DNA of 59,092 bases, taken from the NCBI RefSeq assembly GCF_000743355.1, contig NZ_JQEI01000024.1:1-59092 (forward strand), written 5' to 3'. The notes beneath the pieces were generated by a model that made no database searches, was not told the DNA's origin, and saw nothing but the letters and a program-made list of their open reading frames with translations. This stretch comes from Serratia sp. Ag1. Lineage in GTDB: Bacteria > Pseudomonadota > Gammaproteobacteria > Enterobacterales > Enterobacteriaceae. Each line of letters starts with the position of its first letter. The stretch's first letter is position 1. Positions 11,601 through 26,612 of this stretch are shown piece after piece. Position numbers and translations under genes: made by a program.

Positions 11601-11681
11601 AATGACACCACCAATCCCCAGCAGCAGAATGGCCAGCCAGATACGGGTGCCGTTGTTGATGAAGTTCTCTGTCAGTTTCAT
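8601..11681 (-). CDS. RND efflux permease (AcrB superfamily)
   Basis: This is an inner-membrane proton-driven drug/solute exporter of the resistance-nodulation-division family, 1026 residues, full length for the family. An N-terminal membrane segment (IWLAILLLGIGGVIAFL) is followed by a large periplasmic porter domain. Membrane segments cluster at about 335-480 and 865-1015, as expected of two six-helix halves. In TM4 the motif is LVDNAIVIVE: the first Asp of the AcrB proton-relay pair is kept and the second is Asn, as in the broader single-Asp subfamily. The start ATG overlaps the stop of the upstream adaptor gene (TAATG), implying translational coupling. No outer-membrane factor is encoded next to it, so it probably uses a TolC made elsewhere. 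The substrate cannot be read from sequence. Confidence 0.9.
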   Translation of the reverse strand: MKLTENFINNGTRIWLAILLLGIGGVIAFLNIGRLEDPAFTIKTAVVVTRYEGASAQQVEEEVTLPLENAIQQLPYVDNVTSISSVGLSQITVNIRAEYGAAELPQIWDVLRRRINDASVRLPPGASPPLVNDDFGDVYGFFFSLHGAGYSNQELRNFAEVLRRELVVVPGVGKVGIVGIIPEEVQIEISRAQMTAANIIPQRLFDLLSRQNVVSNAGDLLVGSESIRLHPTGEFSNVQELGNLLISEPGSAKSVYLRDIATITQGFTHSPNNIYRANGQPALSIGVSFAPNVNVIVVGEAVKARLAQLEAERPAGMDISVFYDQSHEVEGAVNGFIMNFLLALLIVVGTLLIFMGVRSGLVIAASLALNVLGTLLIMKLFSIELQRVSLGALVIALSMLVDNAIVIVEGVLVGRQQRESTLQAINNVVKRTMFPLLGATIIAILAFAPIGLSNDSTGEYCKSLFQVLLISLMLSWFTALTLTPVFTKWAFEKQKIVEPKEGESTKSPYDGWLFRVYRNLLSKLLSQRTVTLSVLAALMVASVIGFGSVRQSFFPPSNTPIFFVDIWLPYGTDIAYTEKIAAQIEQHIKELPTVSDTMVTVGQGAMRFMLTYNAQRQYSNYAQVMVRAKQLNQIPGMIGQIETYVRENYPQVNAQAKRIMFGPSNNSSIEARFIGPDPNVLRTLAAKAEKVASSDPNADGVMHDWQERTKVIRPQFSDYLGRELGVDKREIDSALRMSFGGATVGLYRDGTRLMPIVLRTPDAERLNAERLNDVMIWSQARQAFIPIDNVVSSFKTEWEDPLVMRRDRKRTLTVQADPSTQSGETSAELLQRIRPGIDAIPLPRGYELQWGGDYESTKEAQAGLFTSLPVAFVIMFIITVLMFSSLKNAVAIWLTIPLALIGVTLGFLLTGIPFGFMALIGLLSLSGMLIRNGIVLVEEIGLQRKEKPMLEAIIDASTSRLRPILLTAFTTVLGLAPLLSDAFFQSMAVVIMFGLGFATVLTLLVLPVIYSCMNSDKQKVTAETEA

Positions 11682-12766
11682 TACAGACCTCGCTCACGAA
11701 CCCAGGCGCGCACTTCTTGATTTGGACGCAATTCACGGGTGCCCGTTGCGACGATCTGTTCACCATCGGCCAGACCGGAAACGATCTGAATACCGTTGGC
11801 GGTCAATTGCCCGGTTTCAACCCGGCGGGATTCAACAAAAAGCTTCCCATCCTTTTCTTTCACCACCCAGACGTGGGGCTGATTACGCGGTGAGTTGTCC
11901 GGATCAAAGACGGCTTCTACGGGCACGATCACATTGCTGTCCTGTGTCGCAGTCGCCAGGTTACCCAGGTTGATTTTTACGCTACCGCTCATACCTGAGA
12001 GCAGCGGCAAGTCTTGTGGGCGAGCCATAGATAAGGTCATTTGGTAGGTTAACGAACCTGATGTGGTGTTGGTGGTGTGTTCTTTATACTGAGCGACGAA
12101 TTCACGGCCCGGTAAGTTGTTCAGAATGACTCGGGGCTGATACTTCGCATTGTTGGCATCAATGATGACAAACAGGTTTTCGGGAATGCTGAAGATAACA
12201 TCCAAAGAATCCAGTGCATTCAAGGTCGCGATAGGTTGACCCGCAGGTATCACCTGATAGTTACGTGAGTCAACGGAAGCGATGACGCCTGAAAAGGGGG
12301 CGCGGATCTGCATATCGCTCAGTTCTTCTTGCGCGAGCTTCAGCGCTGCCTGAGCGGAATCGCGGGCGGCCCGTTGTACGTCAAGCTCTGCGCGTGGGAT
12401 GACATTGCGTGCGCTCAGCGTGGCGAAACGGTTGAACTGGGCCTGTGCCAGATCGAAGGTTGCCTGGCGATCTTTGAGGCGCAGCCGGGCATCATTGCTG
12501 TTAAGTTCAGCAATCAACTGACCTTGGCTTACCCGTTGGCCTTCACGCACCAGCAACTGTTGTAATTGACCGGGGCGTTTAAAGGCCAGATCGGTTCTAT
12601 CGCCAGCGACGATCCTGGCGGGGAAGATCCGCTCGCCTTGCTGGGCATTGTTTGTAACATCAAAGATGCTGACCGGACGCACGCTTTCGTTATTTTCAGG
12701 GGTCCCTCGGTCACAGGCGACAAGGGACAGTGTGAAAAGCAGAACGGCAACAAGTTTTATATTCAC
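11681..12766 (-). CDS. RND periplasmic adaptor lipoprotein (membrane fusion protein)
   Basis: The product is the periplasmic adaptor linking the downstream RND permease to an outer-membrane channel. It is 361 residues, with a lipoprotein signal ending in LSLVAC, so Cys18 is probably lipidated and anchored in the inner membrane. It shows the usual order: a first biotinyl-lipoyl-like half (PGQLQQLLVREGQRVSQGQLIAEL), a helical hairpin at about 90-150, the second lipoyl half (IRAPFSGVIASV) and a beta-barrel/membrane-proximal C-terminus. It is the first gene of a two-gene operon on the minus strand. No dedicated regulator is adjacent. Confidence 0.88.
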   Translation of the reverse strand: MNIKLVAVLLFTLSLVACDRGTPENNESVRPVSIFDVTNNAQQGERIFPARIVAGDRTDLAFKRPGQLQQLLVREGQRVSQGQLIAELNSNDARLRLKDRQATFDLAQAQFNRFATLSARNVIPRAELDVQRAARDSAQAALKLAQEELSDMQIRAPFSGVIASVDSRNYQVIPAGQPIATLNALDSLDVIFSIPENLFVIIDANNAKYQPRVILNNLPGREFVAQYKEHTTNTTSGSLTYQMTLSMARPQDLPLLSGMSGSVKINLGNLATATQDSNVIVPVEAVFDPDNSPRNQPHVWVVKEKDGKLFVESRRVETGQLTANGIQIVSGLADGEQIVATGTRELRPNQEVRAWVRERGL

Positions 12767-14106: not shown

Positions 14107-14301
14107 GTGAAAAAGATTAATTTGTTCGAAGCTAATGCAATCGTTGGTGGTACTTGCACTACTTGTAGTGTTGAGTATGTCAGAGGGTCACTGACTACTT
14201 GTAACGCAGTTTCAACTTGTGTAGACAAGAATGGTCAAATTGTAAGTACTGAAACTACTCCTACTGATATTGCAAACTGCGGTGTTGTCGACCCAAGCTA
14301 A
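14107..14301 (+). CDS. Double-glycine leader, Cys-rich small peptide (candidate bacteriocin/RiPP precursor)
   Basis: This gene encodes a 64-residue precursor. The leader MKKINLFEANAIVGG ends in Gly-Gly and matches the double-glycine pattern: Glu at -8, Ile at -4, Ile at -12. Cleavage after GG would leave a 49-residue core with five cysteines (TCTTC, TTC, STC, NC), rich in Thr/Ser and with little positive charge. The start is GTG at 14107, supported by taaggat six bases upstream. Genes downstream encode a DsbA-like thiol oxidase and a transporter with a C39 peptidase of the type that cuts such leaders, so this is very probably its substrate. The odd cysteine number leaves one thiol free, possibly for a modification or for dimerisation. 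It may belong to a small enterobacterial family of unknown function (I think of DUF4762), but I could not check this. Its activity is unknown. Confidence 0.75.
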   Translation: MKKINLFEANAIVGGTCTTCSVEYVRGSLTTCNAVSTCVDKNGQIVSTETTPTDIANCGVVDPS

Positions 14302-14342
14302 GCATTAGCTTGCTTTCCTATATTCTAGGATATAACTTCAGT

Positions 14343-14392
14343 GCTGATGCGATAAGATATTTCGTATCAGCCTGTTTGATTTTTGTGCTTTT
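14343..14392 (+). terminator. Terminator-like hairpin between the peptide gene and dsbA-like gene
   Basis: GCTGATgCGA pairs with TCGtATCAGC with one mismatch, followed by a T-rich tract (tttgatttttgtgctttt). Such attenuators commonly sit after highly expressed precursor genes, so that less message reaches the maturation and export genes. Confidence 0.55.
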
Positions 14393-14477
14393 AAATGGAC
14401 AGGGATGTGATTGCTGCTGGTATTATCAGTGGCGCAAGCGTGCTGAAAAAGACAATGATTGTCCCTCCTGTTTCTAA
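14385..14477 (+). CDS. Possible tiny Cys-rich ORF between peptide and dsbA-like genes
   Basis: A short frame, starting at GTG 14385 or TTG 14376 and ending at TAA 14475, would encode about 30 residues with hydrophobic start VLLNGQG, then CDCCWYYQWRKR and C-terminal CPSCF. Five cysteines in such a short stretch are notable next to a disulfide system. There is no ATG and no clear ribosome binding site, and the region overlaps the T-tract of the hairpin. It may be a remnant of a longer frame open from about 14275. Low confidence. Confidence 0.2.
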   Translation: MLLNGQGCDCCWYYQWRKRAEKDNDCPSCF

Positions 14478-14508
14478 GAGTTAATGAATCTGCCTTTTTA
14501 GGACGTAC

Positions 14509-15195
14509 TTGTTTATGTTCAAGAAACCCTTGTATCTAATCGCTTATACCCTTTTTGTGATAGTCGTCTCTTCTCTGATAACAACGGCCTATTTCCACTA
14601 TTTCATTCTTAATCAGAATTCGGGTAGTGGTGCAGAACAAAACAGCCTGACTTCGGTCAGTGCCCAAGAAGTGCAAAACAGTCCAATCAAAGACGACAAC
14701 AGCATTGTCGAATTGTTTTCTTATGCTTGCCATTATTGCTCAATCAATGAAGGGAATGTGGACAAGCTGGAAGCGCGTATGCCACAAGGCTCCAAGCTGC
14801 TCCGGCTACATGTCAATGGCGATCAGATGGGGGCATTTTCGAATACAGCTCCGCTGTTTGCTACGCTGACCGTAATGGGTATTGAGCCCAAATACCGTGA
14901 AAGCGCCTATAAAGCCGTTATTAAAGATAAAATTAACCTGAGCGATATACAGAATCGCGATCGCTGGTTGCAGGATAACGGTATTGATCTGGCCGCTTAC
15001 ACCCAGGCCAGCCAGTCACAACAGGTTAAAGACTTGTTGAATTATATGACTGAAGTTGCCAAATATTACAAAATTAATGCAACACCCACCTTTATCGTGA
15101 ATAAAAAGTGGTTGGCACAGCAGGATCGTGAATTCCCAGAATTTATCGATAAATTGCTGTCGCTGTTGCAACATGATAAGCCGCTGGAGCAATAA
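14509..15195 (+). CDS. Membrane-anchored DsbA-like thiol:disulfide oxidoreductase
   Basis: The protein is a 228-residue thioredoxin-fold disulfide oxidase predicted to sit in the periplasm, tethered by one N-terminal membrane segment (about residues 9-28, LYLIAYTLFVIVVSSLITTA). The active site is CHYC at 74-77 (ELFSYACHYCS), close to the CPHC of DsbA, and the cis-proline region NATPTFIV lies near residue 193. It follows the Cys-rich peptide gene and its stop overlaps the next start, so its natural job is probably to make disulfides in the exported peptide. Tethering by an uncleaved anchor instead of a cleaved signal peptide differs from housekeeping DsbA. The start at 14509 precedes a second in-frame Met at 14515; either could be used. 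Confidence 0.82.
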   Translation: MFMFKKPLYLIAYTLFVIVVSSLITTAYFHYFILNQNSGSGAEQNSLTSVSAQEVQNSPIKDDNSIVELFSYACHYCSINEGNVDKLEARMPQGSKLLRLHVNGDQMGAFSNTAPLFATLTVMGIEPKYRESAYKAVIKDKINLSDIQNRDRWLQDNGIDLAAYTQASQSQQVKDLLNYMTEVAKYYKINATPTFIVNKKWLAQQDREFPEFIDKLLSLLQHDKPLEQ

Positions 15196-16142
15196 TGCGT
15201 TTATTTGCCGTGTGGGTTTATTTGGCGTGGAGAAGTTTACTCACAAAAATAGCGCGCAGCTTTGATCCCGTGCGCCGTACACGCGGCAGGGTTATTTGTT
15301 GGATGCTGCGGTACGGTGATTATCGGCTGCTGCTTGGGTTGGCAGCCGTCGGGCGCTGGTTGAAATTGAGCGATCGGGGTGAGCGCCAGCGCGCGTTTGT
15401 TGCTGCGGCGAATAAACAGTGTTTGCTTGATGACGAGCGCCAGGTTGATTTTGTCAAAATCAGCCAGCGCCGTCGCCTGCTGGAGCTGGCAGCAACCGTT
15501 GGTCAGAATGCTCAGGTGATGGCCCAGTTGGATCGTTGCAAAGCTGAACTTAACGCCGTGGTTGAACCTTTGCATCAGGCGGGTTCACCCGTGGTGTTAG
15601 CGCCGTTGCATATGGTTTCTGATATGTTGGCTGGTCTGGTGGGTGGCGCGGCATATCCTGGTAAAGCAACGGTGATCGTGTCTGCCAGCATCGAGGTTTA
15701 TAACGAAAAATTTCGGCAGCAGGGGGGCGTTGATCTCTCTTACTGTTCTATCCACGATGATAATCGCGCGATTGCTGGTAATTTGATGACGGCAATTATG
15801 GAAGCGACTGAACACCAGCGCAATATTATGATATTCCCGGATATCACCCCAGATTACACCGTAAACGCCAATAAGGCTGAGACGGCAAAATTACACTGTA
15901 GACTATTTGACCGCCCAGCCAATGTGCATAGTGGCGTGATCCGGATCGCCAGAGCGTTGTCGGCACAGGTGGTTTTTTATTATCTGTATTATGACAAAGA
16001 AATAAAAATCCATATTTATCCGCCTACGTCAGCGCGCAGCCTGAAGTCATCGTTGCCCGAGATTATTGAATCCTCAATCACCCGGCATCCACAAGACTGG
16101 CTGCTATGGCACTCACATTCGTTATTTTTTATCAATGAATAA
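15195..16142 (+). CDS. Lysophospholipid/lipid A type acyltransferase-like protein
   Basis: The 315-residue product resembles the LpxL/HtrB-type and related LPLAT acyltransferases, which move an acyl chain from an acyl carrier to a hydroxyl at the inner face of the inner membrane. The likely catalytic segment is APLHMVSDML near residue 138, an HxxxD spacing rather than the usual HxxxxD. Further on, the segment MIFPDITPDYTVN and ARALSAQVVFYYLYYD correspond in layout to the conserved second half of that family. The ATG start overlaps the stop of the dsbA-like gene (TAATG). With ketosynthase, dehydratase, ACP and reductase encoded in the same operon, it is the obvious candidate to transfer the chain they build, to the peptide or to a lipid. 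The acceptor is unknown. Confidence 0.65.
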   Translation: MRLFAVWVYLAWRSLLTKIARSFDPVRRTRGRVICWMLRYGDYRLLLGLAAVGRWLKLSDRGERQRAFVAAANKQCLLDDERQVDFVKISQRRRLLELAATVGQNAQVMAQLDRCKAELNAVVEPLHQAGSPVVLAPLHMVSDMLAGLVGGAAYPGKATVIVSASIEVYNEKFRQQGGVDLSYCSIHDDNRAIAGNLMTAIMEATEHQRNIMIFPDITPDYTVNANKAETAKLHCRLFDRPANVHSGVIRIARALSAQVVFYYLYYDKEIKIHIYPPTSARSLKSSLPEIIESSITRHPQDWLLWHSHSLFFINE

Positions 16143-16166
16143 CCTGGAAATTTAAGAAGTCAGATC

Positions 16167-18314
16167 ATGGAAAAGATAATCCCAACGCTGGTTTTTCAAG
16201 GCGAAACGAATGAATGTGGGTTGGCCTGTATCTCCATGATGGCCGAGACGCAAGGTATCAGTGCACCGCTGGAAAGTTTGCGTGAGCGTTATCCCGCGTC
16301 GCAGCACGGTACTTCATTGGCTACGCTGTGTACCATCATGTCTGAGTTGGCAATGCCGTGCTACCCCGTGGCCTTTGAGCATGACGAATTGGCCGAATTG
16401 CCGTTGCCTGCCATTCTGCACTACGGAGCCAGCCACTATGTCCTGCTTGCCTATCGCAAGGGGGATTATGTTTGCGTGATGAATCCGGCGATTGGTCAGC
16501 AGCTGTTGCCCGTAGAGGCGTTAAAGCGCGATATCAGCGGTTATGCGCTGGTGTTAGACAGTGAAACGCAGCCTGATCCGCAGGCACTGGCAGGCGTGAA
16601 GCGCAGCAAACGTTTCAGCGCTATGGAATGCATGAGTCTGAAAGAAACTGCGGGCATTCGCGGTATTTACCGCTTAATGGTGCTGTCTTTCCTGATTTCA
16701 CTCACCTTGTTTATCATGCCGACGATGGTCAGTTCGGCCATCAATAAAGTGTTCTCCTCGGCGGGTGAGACTGATTTCCCGTATTTCTATTTCCTGCTGG
16801 CGTTTGTGGTATCGACGACGCTGGCATTTGGCGTGCGCTGGGTTACTGAGCGCTTTATCAAGCGCTTTGTGGTGGTGAACAGCGTGGGGGGGTTCTCGCG
16901 GTTACTCAGCAATTCGCTGAACTTTTTCGACAAGCGTGCCCCAGGTGAAGTGTTCAGCCGTTTTGCCAACTGGCAGATGGCCTCTGCAATCAAGATCGAG
17001 TTGGATAACGGCCTGCGTACCGACTGGGTGATTGGTGCTATTGCCTTGGCTGTGATGTGTTATATGAGCCCGCTATTGGCGATGGTATCAGGTATTGGCG
17101 TCACGCTGATGGGCTTGGTCAGCGTCTGGGCGATCTACCGCGATCGTTATTTTACCCAGCAGATGCAGGTCAAAACCGCTGAGCAGAGTGATTTTATTCT
17201 GGAAAGCATTCAGGGCTTCTCTACTATCAAGTCGGCTGGCTTAGACAGCCAGCGTAAAAGCCTGTTTGCCAAGTATGCCCTGTCGTTATTTAGCTGTCGT
17301 CAACGGCAGAAGATTTATGAGCAGGTAAAAAGCAGCCTGTATCAGATGATCGGCAGCCTGGAGATGGTGTGCTTTATGTTCCTGGCATTACCGCTGCTGA
17401 AAGGCGGCACCATTACGCTGGGTGAGTTTTTTGCTTACAGCTTTGTCCGTGAGATTTTTACCTCATATATCACCAAAATCTTTTATGCCATCCTGCAGAA
17501 GAACCAACTGCATGTGATTGATACCCGTGCGCGCGATCTGTTCCCCGCGTTGCCAGAGCGTGAAGAATCGGATTCCGCCATTCCTGCCGCCATCCCGACT
17601 TTCGCTTCACAACTGCGGTATCACAATATTGCTTTTGCTTACGATGCCCAACAGCCAGTGCTGCGTGATCTTTCGTTGTCGCTGAAGCCTGGCCAAAGTA
17701 TCGCCATTGTGGGGGAATCTGGTGCGGGTAAAAGCACCTTGCTGAAAGTGATGACCGGCTTGATGGCACCGCAGCAGGGCGAGGTTCTGGTGGATGGTGA
17801 ACCGGTTGACTATCGTCAGATTCACTCGCTGTTCTTCCTGCAAAGCCAGGAAGATATTCTGTTCAACGCCTCGGTGCTGCACAACATCACGCTGTTTGAT
17901 GACCAGTTTGATGAACACAAACATCGGCAGATTGAACAGTCGCTCAAGGGGCTCAACCTGGCGTCGGTGGTGGAAAAGTTGCCGGGTGGCTTGAATGCAC
18001 TGATCCGCGAAAGCCATGCCGGGCTGTCATTAGGCCAGCGCCAGCGTTTGCTGTTGGCTCGCGCAATGTATAGCGAACGCCCGATTCTGGTGTTGGATGA
18101 ACCGACGGCAAACCTGGATGAAGAAACGGCACATCTGGTGATGACCACGCTGCTGGATCACTGCCGTGAACACCATAAAACTCTGATCACCGTGACACAC
18201 AGTGAGAGCGTATTACCGATGTTTGACCGTGTTTACCGTATGTCCGGCGGGCATATAGCCGGTGTTAATACAGAATTTGAGCCTCAACCGGTTCTGGCAA
18301 CGGCGGTGGGTTGA
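16167..18314 (+). CDS. Peptidase-containing ABC transporter (C39 peptidase, PCAT)
   Basis: This 715-residue protein cuts double-glycine leaders and exports the core through the inner membrane using ATP. Domain order is an N-terminal C39 peptidase (about 1-135), a six-helix membrane domain (about 165-450) and a nucleotide-binding domain (about 490-700). In the peptidase, Gln11, Cys17 (QGETNECGLAC) and His90 (GASHYVLL) are present; the third triad position is Asn106 (VMNPAIG) where many relatives have Asp. The ATPase has Walker A GESGAGKS, signature LSLGQRQR and Walker B ILVLDEPT. It has all parts of an active processing exporter for the GG peptide encoded at 14107. The next gene starts inside its stop codon. 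Confidence 0.9.
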   Translation: MEKIIPTLVFQGETNECGLACISMMAETQGISAPLESLRERYPASQHGTSLATLCTIMSELAMPCYPVAFEHDELAELPLPAILHYGASHYVLLAYRKGDYVCVMNPAIGQQLLPVEALKRDISGYALVLDSETQPDPQALAGVKRSKRFSAMECMSLKETAGIRGIYRLMVLSFLISLTLFIMPTMVSSAINKVFSSAGETDFPYFYFLLAFVVSTTLAFGVRWVTERFIKRFVVVNSVGGFSRLLSNSLNFFDKRAPGEVFSRFANWQMASAIKIELDNGLRTDWVIGAIALAVMCYMSPLLAMVSGIGVTLMGLVSVWAIYRDRYFTQQMQVKTAEQSDFILESIQGFSTIKSAGLDSQRKSLFAKYALSLFSCRQRQKIYEQVKSSLYQMIGSLEMVCFMFLALPLLKGGTITLGEFFAYSFVREIFTSYITKIFYAILQKNQLHVIDTRARDLFPALPEREESDSAIPAAIPTFASQLRYHNIAFAYDAQQPVLRDLSLSLKPGQSIAIVGESGAGKSTLLKVMTGLMAPQQGEVLVDGEPVDYRQIHSLFFLQSQEDILFNASVLHNITLFDDQFDEHKHRQIEQSLKGLNLASVVEKLPGGLNALIRESHAGLSLGQRQRLLLARAMYSERPILVLDEPTANLDEETAHLVMTTLLDHCREHHKTLITVTHSESVLPMFDRVYRMSGGHIAGVNTEFEPQPVLATAVG

Positions 18315-19498
18315 TGAAAACGACCTTGCCGATTTCAGGTAAAAGAACAGTACGCGTGATGTTGTTGCTTGGTTTACTGGCAGCAATAGCACTGGTGGGT
18401 GTAGCGATTTGGTATTTTGCTGTTCCCAAACAGGTTCAGACGCTGAGCACTGCGGTAGTGACGCAGGGCGACATTGAGAAAACCGTGCTGGCTACTGGCA
18501 TTCTCAAACCGGCACTGCAGGTGAGTGTTGGTGCCCAGGTTAACGGTCAGTTGACCAAACTGTATGTCAAACAGGGCGATCGCGTTGTTCGTGGGCAGTT
18601 GCTGGCGGAGATCGACCCTAGGTTACAGCAGAATGAATTGCGTAAATCGGAAGCGGCACTGCAAAGTGCTCAGGCGCAGAAACAGGTCACTCAGGCAACG
18701 TTACGCCAATACCAGCAAGAGCTGAATCGCCAATTGAAGCTGGATCGTGACAGAGCCGGTGTGAAAAGCGATCTGGAAAAAGCGCAGGCGCTGTTCCAGA
18801 CGCAGGTGGCACAGTTAAAAGTCAACGAAGCACAGATTGTGCAGTCTGAGATGGCGCTGGAAACGGCCAAGGCTAACTTGGATTTTACCCGGATTGTGGC
18901 TCCGATCGACGGTGAGGTATTGGGGATTGTCACTAAAGAAGGGCAAACCATCGTTTCGTCTCAGACCGTGCCGACCATTCTGGTACTGGCCAGTTTAGAT
19001 ACGATGACGGTTCACACCCGCATTTCTGAAACTGACATTCTGAAAGTGCGCGTGGGGCAACCCCTGTGGTTTTACGTGGTGGCGGATCCCAAGCATCGTT
19101 ATGACAGTGTGATGGGAGCCATTCAGGAAGCACCAAACGATGCTTTATTGGAGAGCAACCTGTCAGCTTCGACGAATCAGCAGCCTGCTGCGGTTTACTA
19201 CAACGGTATTTTTACCATTGCCAACCCTGAACGTGTGTTGCGTACTTCAATGACTGCACAGGTGTTCATTATCACTGAACAGGCGAAGAACGCCCTGCGT
19301 GTGCCAGTTGCCGCCTTGGGTACACAGCAGGAGAAAGATCGTTATCAGGTGCGGGTATTGGAGGGCGATCAACCCGTTTCCCGCTGGATCCGCGTAGGCA
19401 CCAACGATGGTCAGTTCGTTGAAGTGAAAGAAGGGCTGAAGGAAGGGGAGCGTGTTGTGCTGCCGCAGCAGTCCGGTGGGGGAGTGGGCCATGGTTGA
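18314..19498 (+). CDS. macA-like: MacA/HlyD-type periplasmic adaptor
   Basis: The protein is a 394-residue adaptor with one N-terminal membrane helix (about 15-37) and a periplasmic body. It has a lipoyl half ending VRGQLLAEIDP, a long alpha-helical hairpin (about 100-195), the second lipoyl half (RIVAPIDGEVLGIV) and a barrel domain. This order and the next gene, macB, point to the MacA branch. The ATG at 18314 overlaps the ABC gene stop; a TTG one codon earlier is also possible. It could serve MacB, the C39 transporter, or both, since it is the only adaptor in the operon. Confidence 0.85.
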   Translation: MKTTLPISGKRTVRVMLLLGLLAAIALVGVAIWYFAVPKQVQTLSTAVVTQGDIEKTVLATGILKPALQVSVGAQVNGQLTKLYVKQGDRVVRGQLLAEIDPRLQQNELRKSEAALQSAQAQKQVTQATLRQYQQELNRQLKLDRDRAGVKSDLEKAQALFQTQVAQLKVNEAQIVQSEMALETAKANLDFTRIVAPIDGEVLGIVTKEGQTIVSSQTVPTILVLASLDTMTVHTRISETDILKVRVGQPLWFYVVADPKHRYDSVMGAIQEAPNDALLESNLSASTNQQPAAVYYNGIFTIANPERVLRTSMTAQVFIITEQAKNALRVPVAALGTQQEKDRYQVRVLEGDQPVSRWIRVGTNDGQFVEVKEGLKEGERVVLPQQSGGGVGHG

Positions 19499-21446
19499 TC
19501 AACGCTCGCCACTCATTGAGCTGCGTGGTATCTCACGCCATTTCGTTTCCGGGCTGCAGACGGTTGCGGTGCTGAAGAATATCTCGCTGACCATCCAGCG
19601 TGGCGAAATGGTGGCGATCGTTGGGGCTTCCGGTTCGGGTAAATCCACGCTGATGAATATTATTGGCTGCCTGGACAAACCGACAGAAGGTGAGATGCGC
19701 ATTAAGGGCATTTCAACGCAGTTGGCTAGCAGTGAACAACTGGCACAATTAAGAAGCCAGTACATCGGATTTATTTTTCAGCGCTATCACCTGATGCCTT
19801 ATCTGAGCGCCACGGAAAACGTGTCGATTCCGGCACTGTACACGGCAATGCCGTCGACAGAACGGCAAACGCGGGCCGAATACCTGCTGACCCGGCTGGG
19901 ATTGCAGCAGCGTATGGAGTACAAACCGGCGCAGCTTTCTGGTGGGCAACAGCAGCGGGTCAGTATTGCCCGTGCGCTGATGAATGGTGCTGAAATTATT
20001 CTGGCCGATGAACCGACCGGTGCACTCGACAAGGCCAGCGGGCATGAGCTGATGGGGATCCTGCATTCGCTGCACCAGTCCGGCCACACCATTATTATCG
20101 TTACCCACGATCGCGACGTTGCCAATCAGGCACAGCGCATTATTGAAATCAGCGATGGTGAGATTATTGCCGACAGGCGTAATGAATCGGTGCCAGCGCT
20201 GGAAAACAAACCGTCGATACCGGTCGCGGTAGCCACCGGGCGGGCGCAGTTATGGCAGAGCGTCAAAGAGGCGGTCAAGATGGCCTGGCGTGCCCTGCTT
20301 GGGCACCGGGTGCGGGCTTTTCTGTCGATGCTGGGCATTATCATCGGTATTTCTTCCGTTGTCTCGTCAATGGCCGTTGGCGAAGGGGCGCGGCAAAGTA
20401 TTCTTGAGCAAATCAGCCAGCTTGGTACCAGCACGCTGGAGATTCGCCCAGGCTTAGGTTGGGATAAACCGCGTGCTGATTATGCCCGCTCTCTTAAGCT
20501 GGCGGATGTCGAACTGTTAGCGCGGCAACCTTATGTGGACAGCGTATCCCCGGTGATCAGCAATTCCGTCACGGTCGTTCGCGGCGGGAAAGAGGCGTTT
20601 GTTTCGCTTTCTGGCGTCAGTGACGCTTATTTCCGCGTGCGGGGCCTGCGTTTTATTTCTGGTAACAGCTTCACCCGAAGCGATGTCGAGGAGCGGGAAC
20701 CGGTGGTTATCATCGATCCCGATCTGCGCTCAACGCTGTTTAAAAAAGATGAACAGCCAGAAGGGCAGATTATTCAACTTGCCGGGGCACCTTATCGGGT
20801 GAGTGGTGTCGCTGAACCTAAAGGCGGCAAGTTCAGCGGCATGATGCTGGGGGCGTGGATGCCCTATACCTCGTTACTGGAGCGGATGTCTGGCAGCATG
20901 CCTATTGAGTCGATCACTCTGCGTTTACGCGATGGTTTCTCATTGAGTGAAGCGCAGAAAGACGTAGAGCAGTTACTGGAGCAGGCCCACGGTCGGCGCG
21001 ACTTTTTCACTCAAACCAACGATCAGATGACCGAGACCATGCGTAAGGCATCGGATTCGATGTCGCTGCTGATTACGGCGATTGCAGGTATTTCGCTGTT
21101 GGTGGGGGGGGTTGGTGTGATGAACATCATGCTGGTTTCGGTGACCGAACGCACTCATGAGATCGGTATTCGTCTTTCTGTCGGTGCCCGTCCGGCGGAC
21201 ATTATGCGCCAATTCCTGATTGAAGCCATGGTGATCTGCTCGCTGGGCGGCATGATCGGCATTATCGGTTCCGGGATCGCCGGGCTGATTTTTTCTCAGG
21301 TTACGCAGCAATTCACCATGATTTTCACCTGGCCACCGATCGTGCTGGCTTGCGGGTTCTCGGCACTGATTGGGTTGGGATTCGGCTTTTTCCCTGCGCG
21401 CAACGCGGCGCGCCTTCACCCTACGGAGGCGCTGGCGCGCGAGTAA
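19491..21446 (+). CDS. macB-like: MacB-type ABC exporter (ATPase fused to FtsX-like permease)
   Basis: This is a 651-residue tripartite-pump ABC protein. The N-terminal ATPase carries Walker A GASGSGKS, signature LSGGQQQRV and Walker B IILADEPTGAL. A linker leads to the first membrane helix (MLGIIIGISSVVSSM, preceded by RVRAFLS), a periplasmic domain, and three C-terminal helices, including the segment with VMNIMLVSVTERTHEIGIR. MacB pumps act on periplasmic substrates; in E. coli, MacAB-TolC exports the disulfide-bonded enterotoxin STII. That fits a model in which the C39 transporter delivers the peptide to the periplasm, the DsbA-like protein folds it and this pump expels it. The ATG at 19491 overlaps the macA-like stop by eight bases; an upstream extension of the frame is not needed. 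Confidence 0.88.
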   Translation: MVDQRSPLIELRGISRHFVSGLQTVAVLKNISLTIQRGEMVAIVGASGSGKSTLMNIIGCLDKPTEGEMRIKGISTQLASSEQLAQLRSQYIGFIFQRYHLMPYLSATENVSIPALYTAMPSTERQTRAEYLLTRLGLQQRMEYKPAQLSGGQQQRVSIARALMNGAEIILADEPTGALDKASGHELMGILHSLHQSGHTIIIVTHDRDVANQAQRIIEISDGEIIADRRNESVPALENKPSIPVAVATGRAQLWQSVKEAVKMAWRALLGHRVRAFLSMLGIIIGISSVVSSMAVGEGARQSILEQISQLGTSTLEIRPGLGWDKPRADYARSLKLADVELLARQPYVDSVSPVISNSVTVVRGGKEAFVSLSGVSDAYFRVRGLRFISGNSFTRSDVEEREPVVIIDPDLRSTLFKKDEQPEGQIIQLAGAPYRVSGVAEPKGGKFSGMMLGAWMPYTSLLERMSGSMPIESITLRLRDGFSLSEAQKDVEQLLEQAHGRRDFFTQTNDQMTETMRKASDSMSLLITAIAGISLLVGGVGVMNIMLVSVTERTHEIGIRLSVGARPADIMRQFLIEAMVICSLGGMIGIIGSGIAGLIFSQVTQQFTMIFTWPPIVLACGFSALIGLGFGFFPARNAARLHPTEALARE

Positions 21447-21447
21447 G

Positions 21448-22845
21448 ATGAATAAAATTTCTTTGGCTATCGCGATCTCACTGGTGCTGACGGGTTGTGG
21501 CTCTTTAGTAAAAAGTGATTACCAGCAACCGATGTTGTCGGTGCCTAAACAGTGGCGGGTGCAAGATACAGGGGCGGGTTTTCTGCAACAGACCGATCAC
21601 TGGTGGGAGAATTTCAACGATCCACAACTTTCGATGTTGATTGGCCGAGTGTTGACCAGCAACAACGATCTGGCGATTGCCGGGCTGCAGCTGAAGCAGG
21701 CACGGTTGGCCGCTGGGTTAACCAATACCAATTTGACGCCGGATGTTTCCGTAACCGGCAGTGCCAGCAACACCAAGAACCTGCGGGAAAACCGTGAACC
21801 AGTAGAATCTTACGGCGCTGCGCTTGGTTTGAGCTATGAGCTGGATCTGTGGGGCAAGCTGGCGCGTGCGCGTGAACAAGCAGAGTGGCAAGTTAAAGCA
21901 TCGGAACAGGATCGGCAAAACACCGCGTTAACGCTGATTGGTACGACCGCGCAACTCTATTGGCAGATTGCCAACCTGAATCAGCAGATCGTACATCAGC
22001 AAGCGGGCCTGGATATTGGTAAGCAAACGCTAGAGCTGGTGCAGTCACGCTATGCGGCAGGAGCTGCTGGGCAGATCGAACTGTTGCAGGCGCAACAATC
22101 GCTGCTCGATCGTGAAAACCAGTATCAGACCCTGCAGCAACAGCGGGAGGCGGCGCGTAATGCCATGGCGATCCTGTTCAACCGTGCGCCGACCGATCGC
22201 CAGCCTGAACGAACCTCTTTGGATATCACACAGAACGTTGCCATTGCGCAGACTCTGCCATTGGAGGTGATCGCTCGCCGCCCGGATGTGCAGGCGGCAG
22301 AGGCACGTTTGCGCGCTACGTTGGCCGGTTCCGACGTTGAGCGCCTGAGCTTTTATCCAACATTGTCGCTGAGCGCTACGCTGGGCGCGGGCAGCGCTAT
22401 TTTCCAGCAATGGTTCAGTAACCCATACAGAACGTTGGGAACGAACGCTGCATTACCGTTTATCCAGTGGAATAAAGTGCAACTGACCATCGAAAAGTCG
22501 GAGCTGGATGTGCAGCAGGCGGCGATCCAGTTCCGCAGCAAAGTGTACAGCGCCTTATCTGATGTGGATAACGCGATGACACAGCGCCTGAGTTACCAAC
22601 AGCAACGGATCAATCAGCAACAGAATCTACAGCTTGCCGAGCAGCGCTGGATTCTGACGAAGAGTCAATACGAATCGGGTGCGGTTGCTTTCAAGACGTT
22701 ACTGGATGCGGAAGACGCGCTGCTGACCAGCAAAATAAATCTGTCACAACTGCAATATAACTATCTCAATGCCACCATGACGCTGTGGCTGGCCTTGGGC
22801 GGCGGTGTGGAAAAAGATAATGATACAAAAGGAATAAAATCATGA
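21448..22845 (+). CDS. Outer-membrane factor, TolC/NodT family lipoprotein
   Basis: The 465-residue product is the outer-membrane channel of the export system. The lipoprotein signal MNKISLAIAISLVLTGC puts the acylated residue at Cys17. The mature part shows the NodT pattern of two repeated outer-membrane-efflux halves (for example WWENFNDPQLSMLIGRVL, LSYELDLWGKLARAREQAEW, RRPDVQAAEARLRA). It starts one base after the macB-like stop and its own stop overlaps the ketosynthase start (ATGA). Together with the two ABC proteins and the adaptor it makes the operon self-sufficient for export across both membranes. Confidence 0.88.
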   Translation: MNKISLAIAISLVLTGCGSLVKSDYQQPMLSVPKQWRVQDTGAGFLQQTDHWWENFNDPQLSMLIGRVLTSNNDLAIAGLQLKQARLAAGLTNTNLTPDVSVTGSASNTKNLRENREPVESYGAALGLSYELDLWGKLARAREQAEWQVKASEQDRQNTALTLIGTTAQLYWQIANLNQQIVHQQAGLDIGKQTLELVQSRYAAGAAGQIELLQAQQSLLDRENQYQTLQQQREAARNAMAILFNRAPTDRQPERTSLDITQNVAIAQTLPLEVIARRPDVQAAEARLRATLAGSDVERLSFYPTLSLSATLGAGSAIFQQWFSNPYRTLGTNAALPFIQWNKVQLTIEKSELDVQQAAIQFRSKVYSALSDVDNAMTQRLSYQQQRINQQQNLQLAEQRWILTKSQYESGAVAFKTLLDAEDALLTSKINLSQLQYNYLNATMTLWLALGGGVEKDNDTKGIKS

Positions 22846-24092
22846 ATAAAGACTCTTTGCCACGTCGCGTGGTCGTCACCGGGTATGGTGCCGTCACCCC
22901 AATGGGGATGAATGCTCAGCAAAGCTGGGCGGCAATGATGGATTACCAGTTAGGTTACCGTTATTACGATAGATCCCAGGCTGGGATCCAGTCCCGCTTT
23001 ATGGGGCTGATTGATGAAGAACCTAATCTGAAAGGGATCCCGGCGGCCATCCGTCGCCGTTCGCCGCGTTTTGCCCGTTTGGCCCTGGGAGCGGCGCGTG
23101 AGGCCATGACCATGGCATTCGACAGTGGAAGCCCGGCAGATTACTACGACTTGTTGGATTGTGGCGTCATCATGGGGACCGGCTGGGCCGGGCAAGATGA
23201 AACTCAGGTCAACTACGATGATTATAAAAGGGTTGGGTTAGGATCGCCTTTTGGCTGCTTCCTGACGATGCCTAATGCGGCTACCGCTGCCTGTAGCCTT
23301 TACTGGGGCTTGCGTGGTTACCAGAGCACCCCGATTGCCGCTTGTGCGACAGGGACTATTGCGATTGGTGATGCCTTTGAAGTGATCCGTAGTGGCCGTG
23401 CTTCCATGATGCTGGCCGGTGCTGGTGAATCGTTGCGCACTGATTTTGCGGTCTGGAATATTGATATCCTGCGCGCCCTAGCGAGCGAACAAGAGGACAT
23501 CACAAAAGCCTGCTGCCCGTTCAGTCTGGATCGTAACGGTTTTGTGTTATCCGAAGGGGCTGCCGTTTTGTGCCTGGAAGAGCGCGAAGCAGCACTGGCG
23601 CGGGGTGCGACCATCCTGGGTGAGATTAAAGGATATGGCAACTATTCCGATGCCTTTGATTTCACCGCACCAGCGGAAGACAAAATCGCCAGAATAAAGA
23701 CCATTCAGTTTGCGTTGCAGCAGGCCGGATTGAATGTTGACGAGATTGATTACATCAATGCGCATGGCACCTCGACACAGCTTAACGATCTGAACGAAAC
23801 CGAAGCGATCAAACTGGCGCTGGGCGAAGCCGCCTATACCACCCCGCTTTCCAGCACCAAGTCTTATTCCGGGCATCTGATTGCCGCAGCGGGTAGTTTT
23901 GAGTCGATCATCTGTCTGCAGGCATTACAGCACCAACTGATGCCCGCGACCTGCCACCTGAATAACCCCGATCCGGCCTGCGATCTGGATTACATCAGCG
24001 AAGGGCATCGCCCGGCCAAATTGCAGAACACGCTGAATCTGAGCTTTGGTTTTGGGGGCGCCAATGCTGCCCTGGTGATCGGGCAGGCATGA
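22842..24092 (+). CDS. Beta-ketoacyl-ACP synthase (FabF/KAS II-like)
   Basis: The protein is a 416-residue thiolase-fold ketosynthase that condenses malonyl-ACP with an acyl starter. The full catalytic triad is visible: Cys in IAACATG (about residue 168), His in NAHGTST (about 307) and His in YSGHLIAAAG (about 344). FabF-like features include RRVVVTGYGAVTP at the N-terminus and FGFGGANAALV at the C-terminus. Only one ketosynthase is present, with no chain-length factor partner. It is followed by dehydratase, ACP and ketoreductase genes, so it likely starts a small dedicated acyl-chain assembly line. There is no enoyl reductase, which suggests an unsaturated or 3-hydroxy product unless the housekeeping FabI acts on it. 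Confidence 0.88.
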   Translation: MNKDSLPRRVVVTGYGAVTPMGMNAQQSWAAMMDYQLGYRYYDRSQAGIQSRFMGLIDEEPNLKGIPAAIRRRSPRFARLALGAAREAMTMAFDSGSPADYYDLLDCGVIMGTGWAGQDETQVNYDDYKRVGLGSPFGCFLTMPNAATAACSLYWGLRGYQSTPIAACATGTIAIGDAFEVIRSGRASMMLAGAGESLRTDFAVWNIDILRALASEQEDITKACCPFSLDRNGFVLSEGAAVLCLEEREAALARGATILGEIKGYGNYSDAFDFTAPAEDKIARIKTIQFALQQAGLNVDEIDYINAHGTSTQLNDLNETEAIKLALGEAAYTTPLSSTKSYSGHLIAAAGSFESIICLQALQHQLMPATCHLNNPDPACDLDYISEGHRPAKLQNTLNLSFGFGGANAALVIGQA

Positions 24093-24898
24093 GCATGAAC
24101 CTGACTTACACGGTGCGTGACGCAGAAGAGTGGGCGGCCTTCTCCGGGGATTACAACCCGATCCATTTTGATCTGCAGTATGTGCGCAATATGGGGGCCG
24201 AACAACTCAGCGTCCACGGTATGCGTGCGATGTTGGATATGAAACGCCACCTGAGTGCAGCGTTGTTGGCAACTTCGCCACAGGAGGCGTTTTATACCTG
24301 CAGTACGCGCCTGCGCCATCCGGTGCTTTGTCATACCCCGTACCAGTTGCAGATTACTGAAAACGGTAAGCAAATCACCGGCAAATTGCTTGATAGCACC
24401 ACCCAAGAGTGCTGTTTCAGCAGCAAACTGACGGCGTCACAGCCGTTGGCACTGGCGAGTCAGGGGCAGGAGCATCGGCTCCCTTTGGCCGAGGTAATGA
24501 CCCTCAGCCAGCAATTCCCCGGTGAGGCGTCAGATACGGCTCAGACTTGGGGATTCTTTGATGCATTACTCTTCCAGCTTCTGGTGAAGTCGCCGGAAAC
24601 CCTGGCGATGGTTACAGAGACTCTGCCAGAGCTGACGGCGGCGACGCTGATTGATGTGTTTGCTCAGATCCCGGTAGTTCAGACGCATCATGAAACCCAG
24701 TTCAGCGCGAAATTATTGCTGCCTGATGCACATTACCATCTGGTAGAAGGTTTGGATTATGCCATCCAGCCGATGCTAATCATGGGCAGCAGAGACAGTG
24801 GTTTTGTTCTGCGTACCGAGATCCAGGGCAGAGTACAGCAGCAGCCGCTGATCACCACCGCCGTAACATTGAAAACATGGCCGTTGGCCAGTCATTAA
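24089..24898 (+). CDS. MaoC-like (R)-hydroxyacyl dehydratase
   Basis: This is a 269-residue hotdog-fold hydratase/dehydratase. The diagnostic N-terminal motif SGDYNPIHFD (about residues 20-29) contains the Asp and His expected of MaoC hydratases, followed by VHGMRAMLD. The length suggests a double hotdog in which only the first half carries the active site. It would remove water from the 3-hydroxyacyl chain made by the adjacent ketosynthase and reductase. The start overlaps the ketosynthase stop (ATGA); a second Met follows two codons later. Confidence 0.75.
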   Translation: MSMNLTYTVRDAEEWAAFSGDYNPIHFDLQYVRNMGAEQLSVHGMRAMLDMKRHLSAALLATSPQEAFYTCSTRLRHPVLCHTPYQLQITENGKQITGKLLDSTTQECCFSSKLTASQPLALASQGQEHRLPLAEVMTLSQQFPGEASDTAQTWGFFDALLFQLLVKSPETLAMVTETLPELTAATLIDVFAQIPVVQTHHETQFSAKLLLPDAHYHLVEGLDYAIQPMLIMGSRDSGFVLRTEIQGRVQQQPLITTAVTLKTWPLASH

Positions 24899-24912
24899 AT
24901 AAGGATATAAAA

Positions 24913-25161
24913 ATGGAAAAGTACGAACAGGTTTATAACACCGTTTGCGAAATGATTTGTGATGCTAAAGATCTGGAGATGTCCGATTTGTCTCCTGAAA
25001 TGCCTCTGCACCAGTTGAAATTGGACAGCCTGGACTATGTCGAACTGATGGTTCTGGCCAAGCGTGAATTTGGTGTGACGCTCACTGCTGAAATGTTTAT
25101 CGATAAGCCGGAAATGACGCTTGATGAACTGTGTCAAATGCTGATGGAAGAGCCGAAATAA
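24913..25161 (+). CDS. Acyl carrier protein
   Basis: The product is an 82-residue acidic carrier protein. Ser39 in LKLDSLDYVELM is the site for the phosphopantetheine arm, set in the usual DSL motif at the start of helix 2. The ATG at 24913 follows aaggatat; the frame stays open upstream into the dehydratase gene, but the strong ribosome site and family length fix this start. It carries the growing chain for the neighbouring ketosynthase, dehydratase and reductase and would present it to the acyltransferase. No phosphopantetheinyl transferase gene is nearby, so a host enzyme must activate it. Confidence 0.9.
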   Translation: MEKYEQVYNTVCEMICDAKDLEMSDLSPEMPLHQLKLDSLDYVELMVLAKREFGVTLTAEMFIDKPEMTLDELCQMLMEEPK

Positions 25162-25165
25162 TTGT

Positions 25166-25900
25166 ATGACTAAACAATGGGTATTGGTCACCGGTGGTAG
25201 CCGGGGCATTGGCCGTGCGCTGGTGGAAGAGCTGGCTAAACAATGGAATGTAGTGTTTACCTGCCGCAATAGCCAAGCGCAGAGTGCCGAGGTGATCGCA
25301 GCTTGCGCCGGTTTACCCGGTTGGGTTGAAAGCTGCGTCTGTGATGGTAGCGACGAAGAGGCGGTGAATCAGGTTGCCCCCGAGTTGTTGTCGCGTTTCG
25401 GTGCGCCTTTCGCCGTGATCCATAACGCGGGTATCACGCTTGATGGACTCCATATTCAGCAAAATGGCGACAACTGGCGGCAAGTGATGGATACCAATTT
25501 GAACGCGATATTCTATTGGAACCGACATTTGCTGCCAGCCATGATGGCGCAAGGGGAGGGGGCATTGGTATTGATGTCCTCTGTTTCCGGTGTTAAAGGC
25601 AATATTGGGCAAACGGCCTACGCTGCCACTAAAGCGGCAATGATTGGTATGGGGCGCTCATTGGCGCTTGAGGTCGCCCGCTTTGGTATCCGGGTGAATT
25701 GCCTGCTGCCGGGGATTATTGAAAGTGATATGACCGATGCCATTCCGGCGGAAGCGTTGAAAGCGTTGCGGAAACAAATTCCATTGCGCCGTTTGGGCAA
25801 GGCCAATGAAGTCGCTCGTACCGCTGTATTTATGATTGGTGATGACAGCCGCTACATGACAGGGCAATCTCTGATCCTGGATGGTGGCCTGACCGTCTGA
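25166..25900 (+). CDS. 3-oxoacyl-ACP reductase (FabG-like SDR)
   Basis: This is a 244-residue short-chain dehydrogenase/reductase that reduces the 3-oxoacyl-ACP intermediate with NADPH. It has the cofactor loop TGGSRGIG (residues 9-16), the NAG motif (HNAGIT), the catalytic Ser in MSSVSG and the YxxxK pair in YAATKAA (about 152-156), and a conserved end (GQSLILDGG). It starts four bases after the ACP stop and closes the operon; a hairpin follows at 25947. The FabG-like pattern is clear, though a specialised substrate is likely given the context. Confidence 0.9.
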   Translation: MTKQWVLVTGGSRGIGRALVEELAKQWNVVFTCRNSQAQSAEVIAACAGLPGWVESCVCDGSDEEAVNQVAPELLSRFGAPFAVIHNAGITLDGLHIQQNGDNWRQVMDTNLNAIFYWNRHLLPAMMAQGEGALVLMSSVSGVKGNIGQTAYAATKAAMIGMGRSLALEVARFGIRVNCLLPGIIESDMTDAIPAEALKALRKQIPLRRLGKANEVARTAVFMIGDDSRYMTGQSLILDGGLTV

Positions 25901-25978: not shown

Positions 25979-26612
25979 AATCCAAAGTGGCGGGGATATT
26001 TGTCCCAGAAAATCTCGTGGTTTCTACCTCTATTCTGTTCAAACTCAAATGATCACCTGTGCTCAAGGGATACACTGTTTGAGTCTTGAGCTATTTCACC
26101 TTCCTGTAATACCCTGCCCATTTTAATTTACATCTAATCAATACTCATTTGGGGTTATTTTGCCTTTTGGGAGCAAATTTGAGTTTAATTCTTTAATTTA
26201 ATAAGAATTAACCTGATAATAATTAAAAATAAATTCAATTGGTTGATTTTAAGCTGTTTTGTTTTTTGATTTCAATTTATTTTAATGGGTTTGTTCTGAT
26301 TTGTTTCAGTGATTCATTGTTGGTTAATTACATTCGGTTGGTTTTTTGTTGCAATAAAATTGTCAATTTAATTTTTTATTGATGTGGGTTATGTATAGCC
26401 GATAAATTATTTGTATTTTCTGGTGAAATAAATGTTTGTGGAAACATGGACATAATTAAATTCCTCTACTAGATTTTTTTAACCTGTTGGTTATTGCTTC
26501 TTTTTTAAAAAGATCGGTGCCTGTGTCAGGTGTTTAGTGTGATGTTTATTTTCCAAAGCTCAAATTAATTATGTCCATATTATTTCTATTTCCTTGGATG
26601 GAGATGTTATTC
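25979..26612. other. AT-rich intergenic region upstream of the TpsA gene
   Basis: No gene is visible in these 630 bases. From about 26140 the sequence is very AT-rich, with many T-tracts, as is common upstream of horizontally acquired or H-NS-silenced surface genes. I could not settle on a promoter. The ribosome site for the next gene is ggagatgttattc just before 26613. Confidence 0.5.

What the first reader, a model, noticed from the sequence alone, without database searches (positions are those of the whole stretch)
14107..25900. Operon pairing a processed disulfide peptide with its own acyl-chain assembly line
Eleven genes run in one direction, mostly with overlapping stops and starts: GG-leader Cys-rich peptide, anchored DsbA, acyltransferase, C39 peptidase ABC transporter, MacA, MacB, TolC, ketosynthase, MaoC dehydratase, ACP and ketoreductase. 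Each family is established; their joint presence is what the sequence shows directly. The inference is that a ribosomal peptide is cut, disulfide-bonded, perhaps acylated with a dedicated hydroxy or unsaturated chain, and secreted. I know of acylated ribosomal peptides (lipolanthines, selidamides), but not of one built with DsbA, a C39 transporter and MacAB-TolC together.
Basis: partly seen in the sequence, partly recalled or inferred. Interest (0 to 1): 0.92.

Follow-up and report, generated by a model that had tools for sequence, protein, structure and literature searches.

The report
Operon predicted to lipidate secreted peptide
A conserved block of eleven bacterial genes appears to make a small disulfide-bonded peptide, probably attach a fatty chain to it with its own enzymes, and export it in two steps; the attachment of the chain is a prediction, not yet shown.

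Summary
Confirmed: eleven co-directional genes at 14107-25900 (DUF4762 GG-leader peptide, DsbA, LpxL-like acyltransferase "AT", C39 ABC transporter, MacA, MacB, NodT/TolC-type channel, FabF-type ketosynthase, MaoC, ACP, ketoreductase). The block is a recurrent unit, not a local accident. Of 49 named loci found through AT, 49 carry C39, MacA and MacB, 48 KS and ACP, and the same 44 both peptide and DsbA. Related machinery also lies on enterobacterial plasmids.

New points: (1) in 53 of 53 distinct peptides one Lys (K-x-G) is invariant, more so than three of four core cysteines; (2) cysteines 20 and 38 are missing together in the two Rahnella peptides whose loci lack DsbA, suggesting disulfides 20-38 and 32-58; (3) five Serratia loci keep AT, KS and ACP without MaoC or KR; (4) four distant loci pair a GG peptide, AT and C39 without KS.

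Best reading: a ribosomal lipopeptide, acylated by AT from the dedicated ACP, cleaved and exported by C39, oxidised by DsbA, ejected by MacAB-TolC. Acylation is inferred. The main rival is that AT modifies a lipid. Ten full-text searches showed no description of it.

The parts
14107..14301 (+). Precursor peptide, 64 aa, DUF4762; GG leader residues 1-15 (14107-14151), core residues 16-64 with five Cys; invariant Lys41 of D-K-x-G at 14227-14229
   Evidence: Pfam PF15959 37.1 bits, cut-off 27; alignment of 53 distinct peptides
14343..14371 (+). Hairpin between peptide and machinery genes, possible attenuator or mRNA-processing stem
   Evidence: Inverted repeat 10 nt, 90% complementary; similar stems in the same gap of L049 and L051
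14509..15195 (+). DsbA-like oxidoreductase with CxxC (CHYC) and a hydrophobic N-terminus read as a membrane anchor; likely start 14515
   Evidence: Pfam DSBA 1.2e-12; both Cys in 57 of 58 sequences, the exception being a broken ORF
15195..16142 (+). AT: remote LpxL/lipid A acyltransferase relative, predicted acyl-ACP-using acyltransferase
   Evidence: Pfam PF03279 E 3.1e-4, under cut-off; 12 of 31 aligned members match at E<=0.01, best 7.2e-9; H139, S142, D143 in 65 of 66
16167..18314 (+). C39-peptidase ABC transporter: expected to cleave after GG and export to periplasm
   Evidence: Pfam PF03412 1.1e-22, ABC_tran 1.7e-29; Cys17 and His90 in 64 of 66, the other two broken ORFs
18311..19498 (+). 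MacA-like periplasmic adaptor
   Evidence: NCBIfam MacA 1.1e-86, below equivalog cut-off
19491..21446 (+). MacB-like ATPase/permease (ORF listed from 19452; likely start 19491)
   Evidence: Pfam MacB_PCD 3.1e-43, ABC_tran, FtsX
21448..22845 (+). NodT/TolC-type outer-membrane channel, lipoprotein-like N-terminus (ORF listed from 21370)
   Evidence: TIGR01845 256 bits, cut-off 210
22842..24092 (+). FabF-type ketosynthase with intact Cys-His-His
   Evidence: TIGR03150 6.5e-113, below equivalog cut-off; C168, H308, H345 in 63 of 63
24089..24898 (+). MaoC-like dehydratase
   Evidence: Pfam PF01575 27 bits at cut-off 27; D21, N23, H26 in 58 of 58
24913..25161 (+). Acyl carrier protein with DSL serine (ORF listed from 24877)
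   Evidence: Pfam PP-binding 5.5e-10; Ser51 (ORF numbering) in 63 of 63
25166..25900 (+). Ketoreductase of FabG/SDR type
   Evidence: Pfam adh_short_C2 1.3e-53; S139, Y152, K156 in 57 of 57

Best explanation
The operon makes and exports a ribosomal lipopeptide. Inferred order: KS, with KR and MaoC where present, extends or tailors an acyl chain on the dedicated ACP; AT, a relative of LpxL that is expected to use acyl-ACP, moves the chain onto the precursor in the cytoplasm, most likely onto the epsilon-amine of the invariant Lys of the D-K-x-G loop; the C39 transporter cuts after Gly-Gly and passes the core to the periplasm; DsbA closes two disulfides (Cys20-Cys38 and Cys32-Cys58 in window numbering) around the Lys loop; MacAB and the channel eject it. 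Shown: gene content, conserved order, intact active sites, peptide motif conservation, the DsbA/cysteine match. Inferred: acylation, its site, chain identity, disulfide pairing, order of steps and export route. The biological role (killing rivals, surfactant or surface lipopeptide) is open; I did not identify an immunity gene.
For: Of 394 genomes of the order, 7 have DUF4762 and 10 have AT; the 7 are among the 10. Of 49 named AT loci, 48 keep KS and ACP. AT and KS pairwise distances correlate at r=0.94 over 44 loci (six named loci left out, no species-tree control). Active sites are intact. Lys and Gly of K-x-G are invariant in 53 of 53 distinct peptides, against 51, 53, 51 and 52 for core cysteines 20, 32, 38 and 58. 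The divergent plasmid locus L137 (AT 27% identical, rearranged order, no DsbA hit) has a GG peptide outside DUF4762 by Pfam that carries D-K-D-G between two Cys, though 8.5% of shuffled cores also contain D-K-x-G. Precedents: STII uses DsbA, then MacAB-TolC (PMC5985334, passages); Aat couples an acyltransferase to an exporter with a TolC homolog (PMC7943197, passages).
Against: No direct evidence of acylation. Known enzymes of this acyltransferase family act on lipids (recalled). AT's motif is H-x3-D, not the H-x4-D/E usual in LpxL (recalled). A profile comparison with 14 LpxL-type proteins aligned in register but was not significant (P 0.13, probability 0.5%); the ATs of L109 and L137 do not match PF03279. 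AT occurs with no KS found in L046/L097, L047, L108 and L109; their peptides lack D-K-x-G, although one of two in L047 has N-K-F-G and its sister N-H-F-G. The Lys loop could be a structural turn. The disulfide inference rests on one Rahnella lineage. No peptide was recognised in L081 or beside L133-L136.
Confidence: 0.55

Rival explanations
1. AT with the KS-ACP cassette acylates a lipid (lipid A, phospholipid or a free lipid), giving self-protection against a disulfide-bonded but non-acylated secreted peptide.
For: The one Pfam family that AT and many of its relatives match is Lip_A_acyltrans, and RefSeq labels some plasmid relatives LpxL/LpxP family (others are labelled ABC transporter or hypothetical). 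I did not identify a dedicated immunity gene, so self-protection must come from somewhere.
Against: AT stays with a GG peptide and C39 even in distant loci with an HlyD-type adaptor (L108, L109). It does not explain the invariant Lys.
Confidence: 0.25
2. The peptide is acylated, but at the N-terminus exposed after Gly-Gly cleavage or on a Ser/Thr; the Lys loop is only structural. (This overlaps with the best explanation and differs in the site.)
For: N-terminal acylation coupled to export is documented for Aat (PMC7943197, passages). The core is rich in Thr and Ser.
Against: The residue after Gly-Gly varies (T in 40 of 53, C in 6, N in 2, K in 2, others), unlike the invariant Gly reported for Aat substrates. 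AT is a LpxL relative, expected on the cytoplasmic side (recalled).
Confidence: 0.25
3. The fatty-acid genes and the peptide genes are separate functions that happen to share an operon.
For: The machinery can persist without a recognised adjacent peptide (L081, plasmid loci L133-L136), and peptide-AT-C39 loci exist with no KS found.
Against: 48 of 49 named loci keep KS and ACP beside the exporter; distances of AT and KS correlate at 0.94; L137 keeps the cassette in a rearranged order.
Confidence: 0.05

Closest known systems
Aat lipoprotein secretion system (AatPABCD with Aap/CexE)
   Same: Dedicated acyltransferase plus an exporter ending in a TolC homolog, for a small secreted polypeptide (PMC7943197, passages).
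   Different: AatD is Lnt-like and acts on an N-terminal Gly after the signal sequence is cut; here a LpxL-like AT, GG leader, C39, DsbA and a KS-ACP cassette.
Heat-stable enterotoxin STII export
   Same: Small disulfide peptide oxidised by DsbA in the periplasm, ejected by MacAB-TolC (PMC5985334, passages).
   Different: STII reaches the periplasm by Sec; here C39, DsbA and MacAB are dedicated, in one operon, with acyl genes.
Selidamides (phaeornamide and relatives)
   Same: Ribosomal peptides fatty-acylated on Lys or (hydroxy)ornithine, with a putative peptidase-containing transporter (PMC9505594, passages).
   Different: GNAT acyltransferase and, for phaeornamide, a chain from primary metabolism; no GNAT family was matched by the eleven proteins here, and a KS-ACP cassette is present.
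Lipolanthines and goadvionins
   Same: Ribosomal lipopeptides that hybridise with polyketides (named in PMC9505594, passage).
   Different: Lanthionine-type peptide chemistry and other acyltransferases (recalled); no lanthionine synthetase family was matched in the operon.
Class II microcins
   Same: GG leader and C39 transporter in Enterobacterales (recalled).
   Different: No acyl-chain genes and no dedicated DsbA/MacAB (recalled).

Membership tests
DUF4762 peptides | Match to PF15959 above cut-off | tested here: met
   37.1 bits, cut-off 27
GG-leader peptide with C39 exporter | Double-Gly leader and adjacent C39 peptidase ABC transporter with Cys and His | tested here: met
   GG in 53 of 53 distinct peptides, none dropped for lacking it; PF03412 1.1e-22; Cys17, His90 in 64 of 66. 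Third triad position is Asn in 62 of 66, Asp in 2
Lipid A acyltransferase (LABLAT) family | Pfam PF03279 above cut-off | tested here: inconclusive
   20.4 bits, cut-off 22.3; an ortholog reaches 22.9; 12 of 31 aligned members E<=0.01; hhalign not significant
Lipid A acyltransferase (LABLAT) family | H-x4-D/E catalytic motif (recalled) | tested here: not met
   Conserved motif is H139-x3-D143
Selidamides | GNAT-type acyltransferase | tested here: not met
   No GNAT family matched by the eleven proteins
Selidamides | Acyl group on Lys/Orn side chain | not testable with these tools
   Needs mass spectrometry
Aat system | Lnt-like carbon-nitrogen hydrolase acyltransferase | tested here: not met
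   No such family matched by the eleven proteins
Lipolanthine/goadvionin | Lanthionine-type peptide modification enzymes (recalled) | tested here: not met
   None matched by the eleven proteins
MacAB-TolC tripartite exporter | MacA-like adaptor, MacB with MacB_PCD, and outer-membrane factor in one operon | tested here: met

The most novel reading that the evidence does not exclude
A new class of ribosomal lipopeptides in Enterobacterales and beyond, in which a LpxL-like enzyme, of a family thought to act on lipids, has become a peptide acyltransferase that loads a Lys in a disulfide-closed D-K-x-G loop from its own carrier protein, with a two-stage exporter built around a periplasmic folding step. 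The distant loci without KS would be the ancestral form using host acyl-ACP.
Probability: 0.38. Interest if true: 0.87.

Novelty: new variant of a known kind. Interest (0 to 1): 0.72.

Why it matters
If true, it adds a further route to lipidated ribosomal peptides, besides GNAT (selidamides) and PKS-linked systems. It would give a peptide-acylating LpxL relative as a tool, and explain DUF4762, a name that no paper in the library holds. The operon occurs in common genera such as Serratia, Yersinia, Enterobacter, Citrobacter and Providencia, and related machinery lies on plasmids, so it may bear on competition among enterobacteria. The linked loss of DsbA and a Cys pair gives a directly testable disulfide map.

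Tried and rejected
Sequence searches against the PDB gave one meaningless hit for AT (E 0.53), none for the peptide, FabF-type structures for KS and only weak MaoC matches. Profile comparison of AT with LpxL: one search used wrong-strand ORFs and is discarded; one search used 14 of 20 LpxL-type loci, six being dropped because my motif filter failed on them; not significant (reversed control also not). A class-wide search with the AT profile (369 genomes) gave six weak partial hits (E 7e-6 to 9.6e-4) besides the own genome, which I took for ordinary lipid acyltransferases without following them. PADLOC: no match for the five proteins tried of eleven. Two DUF4762 peptides had no match in the plasmid collection (short diverged peptides may be missed); the pep-dsbA DNA of the window has no match in E. 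coli, and that of S. marcescens none in plasmids, although a diverged machinery stretch lies on plasmids of 9 of 5,426 E. coli genomes. I considered that a FimB-like recombinase downstream in the five Serratia loci without MaoC/KR switches the operon; I think it more likely part of a neighbouring fimbrial switch, from repeats in the two loci examined. A tiny ORF between peptide and dsbA was considered as an immunity gene; only its first residues recur in genus relatives. The terminator scan found one terminator-like site against 0.6 expected, and no + strand promoter-like site. My own relaxed hairpin scan found a hairpin with T-rich tail in 30 of 58 pep-dsbA gaps, not in the window's own, and had no control; it is not used as evidence.
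Full report
What is there. Eleven genes on the + strand between 14107 and 25900 were confirmed. In order: a 64-residue DUF4762 peptide with a Gly-Gly leader; a DsbA-like protein with CHYC and a hydrophobic N-terminus; a remote lipid A acyltransferase relative (AT); a C39-peptidase ABC transporter; MacA; MacB; a NodT/TolC-type channel; a FabF-type ketosynthase; a MaoC-like protein; an acyl carrier protein; and a ketoreductase. Most junctions overlap or are short; 207 bases with a hairpin at 14343-14371 separate the peptide from dsbA. To either side lie an RND pump (8601-12766, minus strand) and a two-partner-secretion-type protein (26571-29453), which I do not count to the block.

Where it occurs. 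In 394 genomes drawn from the order, DUF4762 was found in 7 and AT in 10 (counts include the own genome). All 7 have AT. The three others are G228, with a different GG peptide, and the distant G004 and G105. All 7 genomes of the window's genus have the MaoC gene, and one (G394) carries three complete copies of the operon. A scan of named genomes with the AT profile returned 49 loci in Serratia, Yersinia, Rahnella, Pantoea, Ewingella, Erwinia, Enterobacter, Citrobacter, Leclercia, Trabulsiella, Providencia and others; contig lengths of three genus-mates equal those of records of S. oryzae, S. silvae and Serratia sp. H1w. In these 49 loci (recounted): C39, MacA and MacB 49; channel 48; KS and ACP 48; DsbA 44; DUF4762 peptide 44 (the same ones); MaoC 43; KR 42. 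L073 is a short contig, which probably explains its lack of peptide, DsbA and KR. Some loci have split genes.

Variants. L071, L072, L078, L079 and L080 (S. inhibens, S. plymuthica, S. ureilytica, S. nevei, S. marcescens) have KS and ACP but no MaoC or KR; in all five the next sizeable same-strand gene is a FimB-like recombinase. L074 and L076 (Rahnella) have a different GG peptide and no DsbA. L081 has machinery without DsbA and no peptide that I could find. L046/L097 (one locus seen twice) and L047 pair GG peptides with AT, C39 and MacAB, with no KS or DsbA found. L108 and L109, from other families of the class, have candidate GG peptides (chosen by eye, no Pfam match) with AT, an HlyD-type adaptor, C39 and an OEP channel, and no KS found. 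So AT goes with peptide and C39 more widely than KS does.

Plasmids. A protein search with AT found 14 plasmid records: 10 Escherichia, 2 Salmonella, 1 Chimaeribacter, 1 Serratia. I examined five of these and one further E. coli plasmid. DsbA to KR is present in the three E. coli records and, with split genes, in the Salmonella one. I recognised no adjacent GG peptide in L134-L136; insertion-sequence genes or remnants are annotated upstream of the E. coli copies L135 and L138. L133 (Chimaeribacter) lacks a DsbA hit and a recognised peptide. L137 (S. marcescens pE41) has a rearranged order, no DsbA hit, and a GG peptide with two core Cys and D-K-D-G. Of 5,426 E. coli genomes, 9 have the L135 stretch at megablast sensitivity, all on plasmids.

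The peptide. 61 peptides, 53 distinct, were aligned, including two Rahnella ones and an orphan copy (L045); the peptides of L137, L046/L097, L047, L108 and L109 were not included. Gly-Gly is in 53 of 53. In the core, Lys and Gly of K-x-G and one Cys (window Cys32) are in 53 of 53; the other Cys are in 51 (Cys20), 51 (Cys38) and 52 (Cys58); the Asp before Lys is in 51 of 53. The two peptides that lack Cys20 and Cys38 are those of the DsbA-less Rahnella loci. This suggests disulfides 20-38 and 32-58, with the Lys in the loop closed by 32-58; it rests on one lineage. The one peptide without Cys58 (L084) has Trp there. In L137 D-K-D-G lies between two Cys, but shuffled cores contain D-K-x-G in 8.5% of trials, so this is weak on its own.

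Machinery. KS Cys, His, His 63 of 63; ACP Ser 63 of 63; MaoC D/N/H 58 of 58; KR Ser/Tyr/Lys 57 of 57; DsbA CxxC 57 of 58; AT H139, S142, D143 65 of 66 (these sets include the window, several loci present twice from two collections, and only the best piece of split genes; the exceptions are broken ORFs). The C39 third position is Asn in 62 of 66, Asp in 2 and missing in 2; papain also uses Asn (recalled). Pairwise distances of seven genes over 44 loci correlate between 0.80 and 0.95, as expected of one unit; no species-tree control was made.

AT. The window protein's one Pfam match is Lip_A_acyltrans, under cut-off, above it in one ortholog, with 12 of 31 aligned members at E<=0.01 and a best of 7.2e-9. 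RefSeq labels some plasmid relatives LpxL/LpxP family, others ABC transporter or hypothetical. The hhalign comparison with LpxL-type proteins aligned the His and the C-terminal region in register but was not significant. The conserved motif is H-x3-D rather than H-x4-D/E (the latter recalled). The family assignment is likely, not settled.

Mechanism. I propose acylation by AT from the dedicated ACP, cleavage and export by C39, oxidation by DsbA, ejection by MacAB and the channel. MacB is reported to take substrates from the periplasm, with STII as a disulfide peptide oxidised by DsbA and then exported by MacAB-TolC (PMC5985334, passages read); this makes a DsbA step between C39 and MacAB natural. 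Aat is the precedent for acylation coupled to export (PMC7943197, passages read). Selidamides are the precedent for a Lys- or Orn-acylated ribosomal peptide; the review calls lipidation still very rare in such peptides (PMC9505594, passages read). The chain is not predictable: with KS, KR and MaoC and no enoyl reductase in the operon, a hydroxy or unsaturated chain is possible, but five loci do without KR and MaoC.

Literature. Ten searches of the full-text library were made. No title or abstract start in their listings describes this operon, and DUF4762 returned no paper. The library lacks most subscription journals, so a prior description elsewhere is possible.

Verdict. New variant of a known kind (lipidated secreted ribosomal peptide), possibly a class of its own.

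Noticed in passing
L080:19632-20535 and L072:19658-20545: Downstream of the S. marcescens and S. plymuthica operons a FimB-like tyrosine recombinase is followed by inverted repeats about 270 bases apart, like a fimbrial phase switch; the recombinase follows ACP in all five loci without MaoC/KR.
   Followed up: partly
L045:7366-7644: A stand-alone DUF4762 peptide gene with K-x-G and four core Cys, away from the operon, in a genome (G296) that also has the operon.
   Followed up: partly
L134, L135, L136, L138: E. coli and Salmonella plasmids (L134-L136 typed IncF-type, conjugative; L138 not typed) carry the peptide machinery with no peptide recognised or annotated beside it; CS22-type fimbrial genes lie near in L134 and L138.
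   Followed up: partly
L108:8765-14700 and L109:3882-9747: Other families of the class have GG-leader candidates with a LpxL-like gene, HlyD-type adaptor, C39 and an OEP channel, with no KS found: a wider pairing of peptide and acyltransferase.
   Followed up: partly
window 14395-14484: A tiny ORF between peptide and dsbA whose first residues (MDRDV or similar) recur in genus relatives while the rest diverges; perhaps a conserved RNA element.
   Followed up: no
L042, L043, L044: One genome (G394) holds three complete operon copies with clearly different peptide cores.
   Followed up: no
window 26571-29453: A 960-aa protein with a two-partner secretion domain and GLUG motifs directly after the operon.
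   Followed up: no
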